A stretch of 34,699 bases of DNA from Desulfurococcaceae archaeon (GTDB taxonomy: Archaea; Thermoproteota; Thermoprotei_A; Sulfolobales; Ignisphaeraceae), in NCBI GenBank assembly GCA_020832925.1, contig JAJHRF010000016.1:1-34699 (forward strand). Direction: 5' to 3'. Each line of letters begins with the position of its first letter. The stretch's first letter is position 1. The notes under the pieces were generated by a model. The model made no database searches. It was not told the origin of the DNA and worked only from the letters and a program-made list of their open reading frames with translations. The position numbers and the translations under genes are program-made. Below are positions 1,457-4,720 of the stretch, piece after piece.

Positions 1457-1473
1457 AAAAAGATTTCTCTATT

Positions 1474-1527
1474 CCTCAGACACTGGCGTTCTCATCATTT
1501 CTCAGACCGCTGAAAGGTCATCACAAC
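1474..1527 (-). ncRNA. C/D box guide sRNA
   Basis: On the minus strand all four boxes are canonical: C box GTGATGA (1524-1518), D' box CTGA (1505-1502), C' box ATGATGA (1498-1492) and D box CTGA (1479-1476). The D' and D guides are each exactly 12 nt, and the D'-C' spacer is 3 nt (GAA), as in archaeal C/D sRNAs that bind L7Ae, Nop5 and fibrillarin. The D' guide CCTTTCAGCGGT is complementary over 11 nt to ACCGCUGAAAG, a motif I recall from the conserved 3' part of 23S rRNA. The N+5 rule would place 2'-O-methylation on the fifth target base, a C. The D guide GAACGCCAGTGT predicts a U in ACACUGGCG; its target is not identified. The gene lies between hsp20 and larC, opposite both. Confidence 0.87.
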
Positions 1528-1663: not shown

Positions 1664-2905
1664 ATGTCGAGGGTACTAGTTATTGACCCCTCTATAGCTG
1701 GTATATCTGGCGATATGCTGTTAGGTGGGTTTATAGGTTTAGGATTTAAACCTGAGAAACTAATTGAAGTTGCTAACGTTATTGAGAAAGCCGTTCCATG
1801 GGTAAGAAATTTCAAGATTCGAGTTGAAGAAGTTAAGAAGTTTGAGTTTAAGGCTTGGAGAGTTGATGTGTTAGTCGATGAGGAGAGGAGGTGTAGGAGA
1901 GCTTCGGATCTTCTAAATTCAATTGAAAAAGTTTCTTCGCTAATCGGTTTAAGTAATAAAGCTTCTAGAATAGCTTTAGAAGCTGTTAAAATTCTTGTAG
2001 AAGCTGAAGCTGAAGTTCACGGTGAGGATATCAGCGATGTAGATCTATGTGAGATAAGCTCTGCTGATACTGTATTAGATACTGTTGGTGTTGCATATGC
2101 ACTTCAAGAACTTGACCTACTGAACGCTAAAGTCTACGGGCTTCCGATAGCTGTTGGCGGTAGTAGGATACAGTTCTCACATGGTTCTGTATCTATTCCT
2201 ACACCTGTTGTTCTAGAAATAGCTAAGAAGAAAAATCTTGTACTTGTAGGAGGTCCTGTAGATGAAGAACTTGCAACACCGACTGGTGTAGCTCTTTACG
2301 CTGTAATAGTTGATGAGGTTAAGAATCTATTGCCTATGACGAAAATCGTTGCTGTTGGTTATGGAGCTGGGTCTAGAGATCTGAAGAGTGTACCGAACAT
2401 ATTGAGGTTGATAATAGGGGAAGAGCTAGAGATATACACAGAGGATACTATATACGTACTCGAGACAGATATCGATGATGTATCAGGAGAAATCCTGGGA
2501 TTTGTGGGCGAGAAATTGGTTTCTCAAGGAGCTCTCGATATAGCTTTCATACCTAAGATAGGTAAGAAAGGAAGGCCTTCGTTTATATTAAGGGTTTTAA
2601 CAAAACTTCAGGATTTAGAGAAACTCTTAGATATAGTGGTTAAGGAGACTGGTACCTTAGGGGTTAGGGTGATGAAGGTTCATAGATATATTGTTCCTAA
2701 CAGAGATATTGTGAAGACTGCTGTAGATATAAATGGTGAAAAGTATGAAGTAAGGGTTAAAATTAGTAGACTAGGAGATGGCAAGATTATATCGGTAAAA
2801 CCTGAGTTCGAAGACCTTAAAAACATATCTATTAAGACAGGTATCCCGTTAAGAAACATTATGAAAATCGTTATGGATAATATCAGCAATGAGCAAAAAC
2901 TATAG
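1664..2905 (+). CDS. larC: Nickel-pincer cofactor biosynthesis protein LarC
   Basis: LarC inserts nickel into the pyridinium-3,5-bisthiocarboxylic acid mononucleotide precursor in a CTP-dependent step, giving the nickel-pincer nucleotide. The 413-residue protein starts with the family hallmark DPSIAGISGDMLLGGFIGLG (residues 8-27) and carries the conserved segments ADTVLDTVGVAYAL, TPTGVALY and ETDIDDVSGEILGF. It is a single open frame covering both the LarC1 and LarC2 parts, unlike Lactiplantibacillus plantarum, where a programmed frameshift joins them. The ribosome binding site AAGGTGA (1651-1657) lies 6 bases before the ATG, and TTATTTAAG near 1612-1620 may be the TATA box. It is followed convergently by larB, with larE beyond. 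Confidence 0.93.
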   Translation: MSRVLVIDPSIAGISGDMLLGGFIGLGFKPEKLIEVANVIEKAVPWVRNFKIRVEEVKKFEFKAWRVDVLVDEERRCRRASDLLNSIEKVSSLIGLSNKASRIALEAVKILVEAEAEVHGEDISDVDLCEISSADTVLDTVGVAYALQELDLLNAKVYGLPIAVGGSRIQFSHGSVSIPTPVVLEIAKKKNLVLVGGPVDEELATPTGVALYAVIVDEVKNLLPMTKIVAVGYGAGSRDLKSVPNILRLIIGEELEIYTEDTIYVLETDIDDVSGEILGFVGEKLVSQGALDIAFIPKIGKKGRPSFILRVLTKLQDLEKLLDIVVKETGTLGVRVMKVHRYIVPNRDIVKTAVDINGEKYEVRVKISRLGDGKIISVKPEFEDLKNISIKTGIPLRNIMKIVMDNISNEQKL

Positions 2906-2935
2906 CATCCCTTCCCCAAGGTCTATAGCCAGGTT

Positions 2936-3754
2936 TTAAGATCGTTTCTGATCTTTATTAAAACATTTTTCTCTTGTTAGAGCAATTCTCCTACCTATAA
3001 GAGCTGCTATAACTCCTGCACCAACACCATTATCTATATTTACAACAGCTAGACCTAGTGGACATGCTTGTAGCATAGAGTACAGAGCCGCAACCCCTCC
3101 GCCACCTACCCCATAACCAACAGGTGTAGGAACACCTATAACCGGTACATCTATTAGCGAAGCTATAACAGATGGGAGAGCTCCCTCCATACCGGCTACA
3201 GCTACAACTACATCGACATCCTCTTCCTTAAGTTTTTTCAAAGCTTCTAAAACTCTATGGAACCCAGCTATACCTACATCGTAGATAGTTATCGCTTCGC
3301 ACCCCATAACTTCTACAACTGTTCTAGCTTCTTCAGCTACCTTGATATCAGCTGTCCCTGCAGTTACAATACCTACTCTACATAGATACCTAGGTAGTGA
3401 AACAGATTTTAGTTTTACAACAGCTATCCTACCTACCTCATTCAAGCTAACCTCAACATCAGCATCCTTGATACTCTTAAGCATCTCTATCTGTTGCTCT
3501 GTAAGCCTAGACACTACAACAACTCCTAAATTCCTCAATAACCTATCCATAATCTTCTTTAACGTCTCTACATCCTTACCTTCCCCAAGAACTATCTCAG
3601 GAATATCTCTCCTAACATATCTACTGATATCGAATTTAACAACATCATCTATAACCTCTAAAGCAAATAACCTTATTTTCTTCAGAGCTTCTTCAACACT
3701 CATCTTCTTACTAGCCACTGCCTCAAGTATAGATCTAAGATCTTCAGCTACCAT
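2936..3754 (-). CDS. larB: Nickel-pincer cofactor biosynthesis protein LarB
   Basis: LarB carboxylates the pyridinium ring of nicotinic acid adenine dinucleotide and hydrolyses it, the first committed step of nickel-pincer synthesis. The C-terminal half resembles AIR carboxylase (PurE): GIVTAGTADIKVAEEA, then VAVAGMEGALPSVIASL, then VGVGG-type glycine-rich loops and NIDNGVGAG. The N-terminal half has the LarB helix DLRSILEAVASKKMSVEEAL. I choose the ATG at 3754 (272 residues) because it has an AGGGAT ribosome binding site and matches the usual N-terminus. The open frame extends upstream to an ATG at 3799. It converges on larC and diverges from larE, with 69-114 bases between the two starts. 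Confidence 0.92.
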   Translation of the reverse strand: MVAEDLRSILEAVASKKMSVEEALKKIRLFALEVIDDVVKFDISRYVRRDIPEIVLGEGKDVETLKKIMDRLLRNLGVVVVSRLTEQQIEMLKSIKDADVEVSLNEVGRIAVVKLKSVSLPRYLCRVGIVTAGTADIKVAEEARTVVEVMGCEAITIYDVGIAGFHRVLEALKKLKEEDVDVVVAVAGMEGALPSVIASLIDVPVIGVPTPVGYGVGGGGVAALYSMLQACPLGLAVVNIDNGVGAGVIAALIGRRIALTREKCFNKDQKRS

Positions 3755-3868
3755 ATGTATCCCTAAAAAACTACACATTATACCATTTCGCACCTTCATA
3801 TAGGTTTCGTTTTTAACACTAGAAACCAGAACTAAGTAGATACTTGGTATAGCTATGGGGTATCGTCA

Positions 3869-4720
3869 ATGAATAGCAGAAACAGTGTTGCTAAGAAACT
3901 TGTTGAGAAGCTTATGCAGTGGTTTAAAGCTGTGAAACCTCTTGTTATGGTATTGTTTTCAGGAGGTGTAGATAGTTCTGTTGTATTAGCTACAGCATGT
4001 CTATCTATAGGATGTGAAAATGTTTTAGCTGTTACAGTTACATCCCCTATAAGATTTCCTGAGGATCTAGAGTGGGCTAAGAAGATAGCATCTATGTTAG
4101 GTGTTAAACATGTTATTGTAGAGACAAATGAGTTAAGTATAAAGGAGTTTGTATCGAATCCTCCTAACAGATGCTATATATGTAAAAAACATTTAGCAGG
4201 AAAAGTTATCGAATTAGTTAAGAAGTTTAATGTGGAAACGATTGTCGATGGAACTAATGCAGATGATTTAAAAAGCTATAGACCTGGTATCAAAGCTTTT
4301 AGAGAGATAGGGGTTAGAAGTCCTTTAGCTGAACTCGGTATAGGTAAGGAGGAGGTTAGGGTTATAGCTAAGGCTCTAAACTTACCGAATTGGGATAGAC
4401 CTCCCATGACTTGTTTAGCTACAAGGATACCCTATGGAGAACTTATAACAATTGAAAAACTTAGAAGAATAGCGAAAGCTGAGGAGATTATCAAAAGCCT
4501 TACAGGTGTTAAACTGGTTAGGGTAAGAGATCATAACTATATTGCTAGAATAGAAGTTTATCCAAAGGAGAGAAAGAAGTTCTTCGACGAAGAGTTGATG
4601 GATAGAATTGCATATGAACTTAAAAACTTAGGATACAAATATGTTACACTAGATCTTCAAGGTTATAGAAGTGGTAGTCTAGATGAATTACTAAAGGAAA
4701 ACAGACAGAATTCCGCATAA
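3869..4720 (+). CDS. larE: ATP-dependent sulfur transferase LarE
   Basis: LarE activates the two carboxylates of the pincer precursor by adenylylation and converts them to thiocarboxylates. The PP-loop motif is SGGVDSS (residues 31-37), followed by DGTNADD (127-133) and the family signature PPMTCLATRIPYGE (178-191). Cys182 is the position of the sacrificial cysteine in the L. plantarum enzyme. Two more cysteines sit in CYICK (Cys102, Cys105). This three-cysteine arrangement is that of the LarE subtype reported to hold a [4Fe-4S] cluster and to act catalytically, not by sacrificing its cysteine. That subtype fits an anaerobic thermophile. The gene is divergent from larB, and its length of 283 residues is normal. 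Confidence 0.93.
   Translation: MNSRNSVAKKLVEKLMQWFKAVKPLVMVLFSGGVDSSVVLATACLSIGCENVLAVTVTSPIRFPEDLEWAKKIASMLGVKHVIVETNELSIKEFVSNPPNRCYICKKHLAGKVIELVKKFNVETIVDGTNADDLKSYRPGIKAFREIGVRSPLAELGIGKEEVRVIAKALNLPNWDRPPMTCLATRIPYGELITIEKLRRIAKAEEIIKSLTGVKLVRVRDHNYIARIEVYPKERKKFFDEELMDRIAYELKNLGYKYVTLDLQGYRSGSLDELLKENRQNSA

What the first reader, a model, noticed from the sequence alone, without database searches (positions are those of the whole stretch)
1474..1527. Canonical C/D box sRNA with a plausible 23S rRNA target
All four boxes are perfect, both guides are 12 nt and the D'-C' spacer is 3 nt. The D' guide complements ACCGCUGAAAG, which I recall as part of the conserved 3' region of 23S rRNA, predicting Cm at the fifth base. 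The D guide (GAACGCCAGTGT) predicts Um in ACACUGGCG, whose location is unknown and could be another rRNA site or a tRNA.
Basis: partly seen in the sequence, partly recalled or inferred. Interest (0 to 1): 0.6.

Follow-up and report, generated by a model that had tools for sequence, protein, structure and literature searches.

The report
Ordinary archaeal rRNA-methylation guide RNA
This is a textbook archaeal C/D box small RNA from a hot-spring archaeon of the genus Ignisphaera that probably directs methylation of two or three sites in the large ribosomal RNA; such RNAs are common, and the only mildly unusual point is that its two guides sit in the opposite order to those of its relatives.

Summary
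Window 1524-1476 reads GTGATGA-12 nt-CTGA-3 nt-ATGATGA-12 nt-CTGA, all boxes perfect; 300 simulated windows gave none. The host assembly holds no rRNA, so targets were tested on sister genomes (genus Ignisphaera) and relatives. The same guide fits a second 23S site equally well (two G-U pairs, same computed energy), 41 nt from the D-guide site. Only 8 contiguous pairs form in sister rRNA, but related guides in other families score 9.5-11 there. A tRNA-Leu match (U44) cannot be excluded. In another family of the order, sRNAs carry the same two guides in swapped slots, and I. aggregans pairs the U guide with a different partner. Guide swapping and circular rearrangement of this kind are already described. 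No transcript or methylation was measured. Verdict: a real gene by sequence, a new member of a known kind, low interest.

The parts
1476..1524 (-). C/D box sRNA core (C box to D box)
   Evidence: perfect boxes and spacing; 0 in 300 simulations
1518..1524 (-). C box GTGATGA
1506..1517 (-). D' guide CCTTTCAGCGGT; 11 WC pairs to 23S ACCGCUGAAAG (E. coli C2745), and 11 pairs with 2 G-U to 23S GCCGCUGAAGG (E. coli ~1897)
1502..1505 (-). D' box CTGA
1499..1501 (-). D'-C' spacer GAA
1492..1498 (-). C' box ATGATGA
1480..1491 (-). D guide GAACGCCAGTGT; 8 WC pairs to 23S CCACUGGCGGUC (Um near E. coli 1841)
1476..1479 (-). D box CTGA
1457..1461 (-). run of five T about 15 nt downstream of the D box on the minus strand (TCTTTTTC), possible archaeal U-rich terminator
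   Evidence: sequence; function inferred

Best explanation
It is a double-guide archaeal C/D box sRNA of an Ignisphaera species. Inferred from the known mechanism: L7Ae binds the C/D and C'/D' kink motifs, Nop5 and fibrillarin join, and the ribose opposite the fifth guide base upstream of each D box is methylated. The D guide most likely directs Um in the helix 68 region of 23S rRNA (E. coli ~1841). The D' guide most likely directs Cm at 23S C2745 (E. coli numbering, helix 97 region) and/or at a C 41 nt downstream of the helix 68 U. In the second case one sRNA would hold two nearby segments around helix 68 and may help it fold. Shown here: anatomy, complementarity in sister rRNAs, recurrence of both guides in other C/D sRNAs. 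Inferred: transcription, RNP assembly, methylation.
For: Perfect architecture far beyond chance. D' guide: 11 contiguous WC pairs covering the +5 base in 10 of 11 rRNAs; shuffled guides reach this in 1%. The same guide before a D-like box, preceded by a C-like box, occurs in 8 further genomes of the order. The second D' site has the same duplex energy, -17.9 kcal/mol, and lies 41 nt from the D site. D guide: in other families, guides ending CGCCAGTGT score 9.5-11 pairs at the same U (G-U counted as half). Sister genomes G009 and G001 hold the U guide in another C/D sRNA. sRNAs of family f9 (G044, G128, G138, and G126 with a decayed U guide) join both guides in one RNA.
Against: No rRNA in the host assembly, so no rRNA target was tested in its own genome. 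The D guide has only 8 contiguous WC pairs in sister rRNA, below the 9-pair rule of Dennis et al. 2015 (PMC4644070), and 22% of shuffled guides do as well somewhere in 16S+23S. The same-genus genome G002 has a G-to-A change in the H97 target. No expression data.
Confidence: 0.88

Rival explanations
1. The D guide now targets tRNA-Leu(UAA) and tRNA-Leu(CAA) at the U just after the anticodon stem (position 44), rather than (or besides) 23S rRNA.
For: In the host genome the guide forms 9 contiguous pairs (8 WC, 1 G-U) with CCGCUGGCGUAG of these two tRNAs, computed -16.8 against -16.1 kcal/mol for the 23S site. The A at guide position 10 pairs with the tRNA and not with 23S.
Against: Shuffled guides reach this in about 10% of cases. 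Relatives' guides fit 23S better than this tRNA site. Three other tRNA-Leu isoacceptors lack the match at one base.
Confidence: 0.15
2. The D guide is an orphan: it is decaying and only the D' guide works.
For: 8 WC pairs only; position 10 has lost its pair with 23S. Orphan guides are common: 28% in Pyrobaculum (PMC7994747).
Against: Eight bases near the D box, including the methylation position, keep perfect pairing with the sister rRNAs, and the D box is intact.
Confidence: 0.15
3. A chance pattern or degenerate relic that is not transcribed.
For: No transcript data; no stem-loop terminator found by the simple scan.
Against: About 4e-6 expected by chance; both guides recur in C/D sRNAs of other genera.
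Confidence: 0.03

Closest known systems
[quoted passage not shown]
   Same: Box consensus, two 12-nt guides, N-plus-five geometry, 23S targets, helix 68 as a methylation hotspot
   Different: Nothing in kind; the guide pair was not checked against the published list, whose supplements could not be opened
sRNAs of family f9 of the same order (G044, G128, G138; G126 degenerate)
   Same: Same two target sites in one RNA
   Different: Guides in opposite slots: U guide before D', C guide before D
C/D sRNA of Ignisphaera aggregans (G009, L069) and of G001 (L023)
   Same: Same U guide (xxxCGCCAGTGT or xxxTGCCAGTGT)
   Different: U guide sits before D'; the partner guide targets 23S 28 nt upstream of the U, not the C sites
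Methanopyrus kandleri sR88 versus sR39/119 (PMC4644070)
   Same: Guide positions exchanged, read there as a circular rearrangement
   Different: Different guides and organism
Rfam sR14 (RF01145), snoPyro_CD (RF00095), sR12 (RF01147)
   Same: Overall box architecture
   Different: Guides differ; scores below the gathering cut-offs

Membership tests
Archaeal C/D box sRNA | C (RTGATGA) and D (CTGA) boxes, with C' and D' | tested here: met
   four perfect boxes
Archaeal C/D box sRNA | Guide spacing of about 10-12 nt and a short D'-C' loop | tested here: met
   12, 3, 12 nt
Archaeal C/D box sRNA | At least 9 consecutive WC pairs to rRNA including +5: D' guide | tested here: met
   11 pairs in sister-genome 23S; host rRNA not available
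Archaeal C/D box sRNA | At least 9 consecutive WC pairs to rRNA including +5: D guide | tested here: inconclusive
   8 pairs in sister 23S, up to 11 for the guides of relatives; host rRNA absent
Archaeal C/D box sRNA | Conserved guide in related genomes | tested here: met
Archaeal C/D box sRNA | Expressed and bound by L7Ae, Nop5 and fibrillarin | not testable with these tools
   needs RNA-seq and pull-down
Double guide with two sites within 100 nt | D and D' sites within 100 nt | tested here: inconclusive
   41 nt apart if the second D' site is used (2 G-U pairs); about 886 nt if the H97 site is used

The most novel reading that the evidence does not exclude
The gene arose by circular permutation of an older sRNA that joins a helix 68 U guide and a C guide, its RNA holds both sides of helix 68 and also a second, distant 23S site, and one drifting guide base is shifting the D guide towards tRNA-Leu U44.
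Probability: 0.1. Interest if true: 0.35.

Novelty: new member of a known kind. Interest (0 to 1): 0.15.

Why it matters
It adds one well-supported methylation guide and its predicted targets for a genus in which such genes are probably little annotated. The comparison across genera is a clean small example of guide modules being re-paired and swapped between sRNA slots while their rRNA targets stay fixed.

Tried and rejected
16S targets: at most 7 contiguous WC pairs covering the +5 base for either guide in the two 16S rRNAs tested. A perfect 9-nt D target ACACTGGCG elsewhere in the host genome: only the sRNA itself matches. Host 16S and 23S: not found in the assembly. Scans of named genomes with the Hsp20 and LarC neighbours to study synteny gave no useful locus. 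The first duplex script was wrong because loci on the minus strand were not turned; one search replaces it. Similarity to Rfam sR14 and sR12 was rejected as homology because the guides differ. The relaxed guide pattern in the family found further sequences with other letters at the D box; these were not followed. The alignment was uninformative.

Full report
Observation. The minus strand at 1524-1476 reads GTGATGA CCTTTCAGCGGT CTGA GAA ATGATGA GAACGCCAGTGT CTGA. The expected number of such structures in a sequence of this composition and length is about 4e-6, and none arose in 300 simulated windows. No other candidate exists in the window even with two box mismatches.

Surroundings. The sRNA lies in the gap between an Hsp20-like gene (1028-1456, +; Pfam HSP20 20.5 bits, just under its 20.8 cut-off) and a larC-like nickel-insertion gene (1664-2905, +; 349.8 bits), in the opposite orientation to both. 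A T-rich stretch follows the D box on the minus strand. A promoter was not identified; most archaeal C/D sRNA genes lack their own promoter (PMC7994747).

Host. The sister genome G009 has exactly 1,875,953 bases, the published size of Ignisphaera aggregans DSM 17230 (PMC3035270). The window's genome is placed in the same genus, so it is very probably another Ignisphaera species. Its assembly has 44 tRNA matches but no 16S or 23S rRNA, so the rRNA of sister genomes served as proxy.

D' guide. It forms 11 contiguous Watson-Crick pairs with 23S ACCGCUGAAAG in 10 of 11 rRNAs from the same genus and order. In G002 one base of the site is changed (ACCACUGAAAG). The base opposite guide position five is C, E. 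coli C2745. Shuffled guides reach 11 pairs in 16S+23S in 1% of trials. A second 23S site, GCCGCUGAAGGC, gives 11 pairs with two G-U and the same computed energy (-17.9 kcal/mol). It predicts Cm at position 2064 of the sister rRNA L033, near E. coli 1897.

D guide. The best 23S site is CCACUGGCGGUC, predicting Um at L033 position 2023, near E. coli 1841 in the helix 68 region (the E. coli alignment is loose here, and helix names are from general knowledge). It has 8 contiguous pairs, a mismatch and two more pairs. By itself this is weak: 22% of shuffled guides do as well somewhere in 16S+23S. The support is comparative: guides ending CGCCAGTGT before CTGA in other families score 9.5 to 11 pairs at this same U (G042, G052 and G128 with rRNA of their own genome, G133 with rRNA of its genus; G113 and the near-identical guide of G138 with a relative's rRNA; G185 against the site sequence only). 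The two helix 68 sites are 41 nt apart, which fits the frequent double-guide pattern of sites within 100 nt (PMC4644070).

Rival target. In the host genome tRNA-Leu(UAA) and tRNA-Leu(CAA) contain CCGCUGGCGUAG, with 9 contiguous pairs (one G-U) to the D guide and the U after the anticodon stem at the methylation position. The computed energy is about that of the 23S site, but 10% of shuffled guides do as well. I give it about 0.15.

Evolution. The C guide, downstream of a C-like box and before a D-like box, occurs in eight other genomes of the order and the U guide in seven. In G044, G128, G138 and, with a decayed U guide, G126 (all family f9) one sRNA carries both, with the U guide before D' and the C guide before D. 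The window has the opposite order. In I. aggregans (G009) and in G001 the U guide sits before D' with a partner that pairs 10 bases with 23S 28 nt upstream. The simplest readings are circular rearrangement, recombination of guide modules, or convergence; all three are already discussed for archaeal C/D sRNAs (M. kandleri sR88 and others, PMC4644070). The data here do not decide between them.

Verdict. A real C/D box sRNA gene by sequence evidence, with at least one well-supported 23S target. It is a new member of a known kind and of low interest. Transcription and methylation were not tested.

Noticed in passing
L069 (G009) and L023 (G001), sRNA with D guides ATACTCACCCTC and CTACACACCCTC: The partner guide differs between the two species; the G009 guide pairs 10 bases with G009's own 23S AAGGGTGAGTAC, and the G001 guide pairs 10 bases with the AAGGGTGTGTAC form seen in other members of the genus. 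This looks like guide-target co-change.
   Followed up: partly
L057 (G044) and L058 (G126): The sRNAs with both guides begin a few tens of bases or less after what looks like a tRNA 3' end, suggesting tRNA-sRNA co-transcripts, a known arrangement.
   Followed up: no
window 1664-4720: Neighbouring genes resemble a lar set: larC (Ni_insertion), a larB-like AIR carboxylase-domain gene on the minus strand, and a larE-like PP-loop ATPase (lar names are inference).
   Followed up: partly
L056 (G008:C10 16S rRNA): The 16S gene is about 190 nt longer than in sister genomes, with extra sequence after AAGGCTGAAA, consistent with an archaeal rRNA intron.
   Followed up: no
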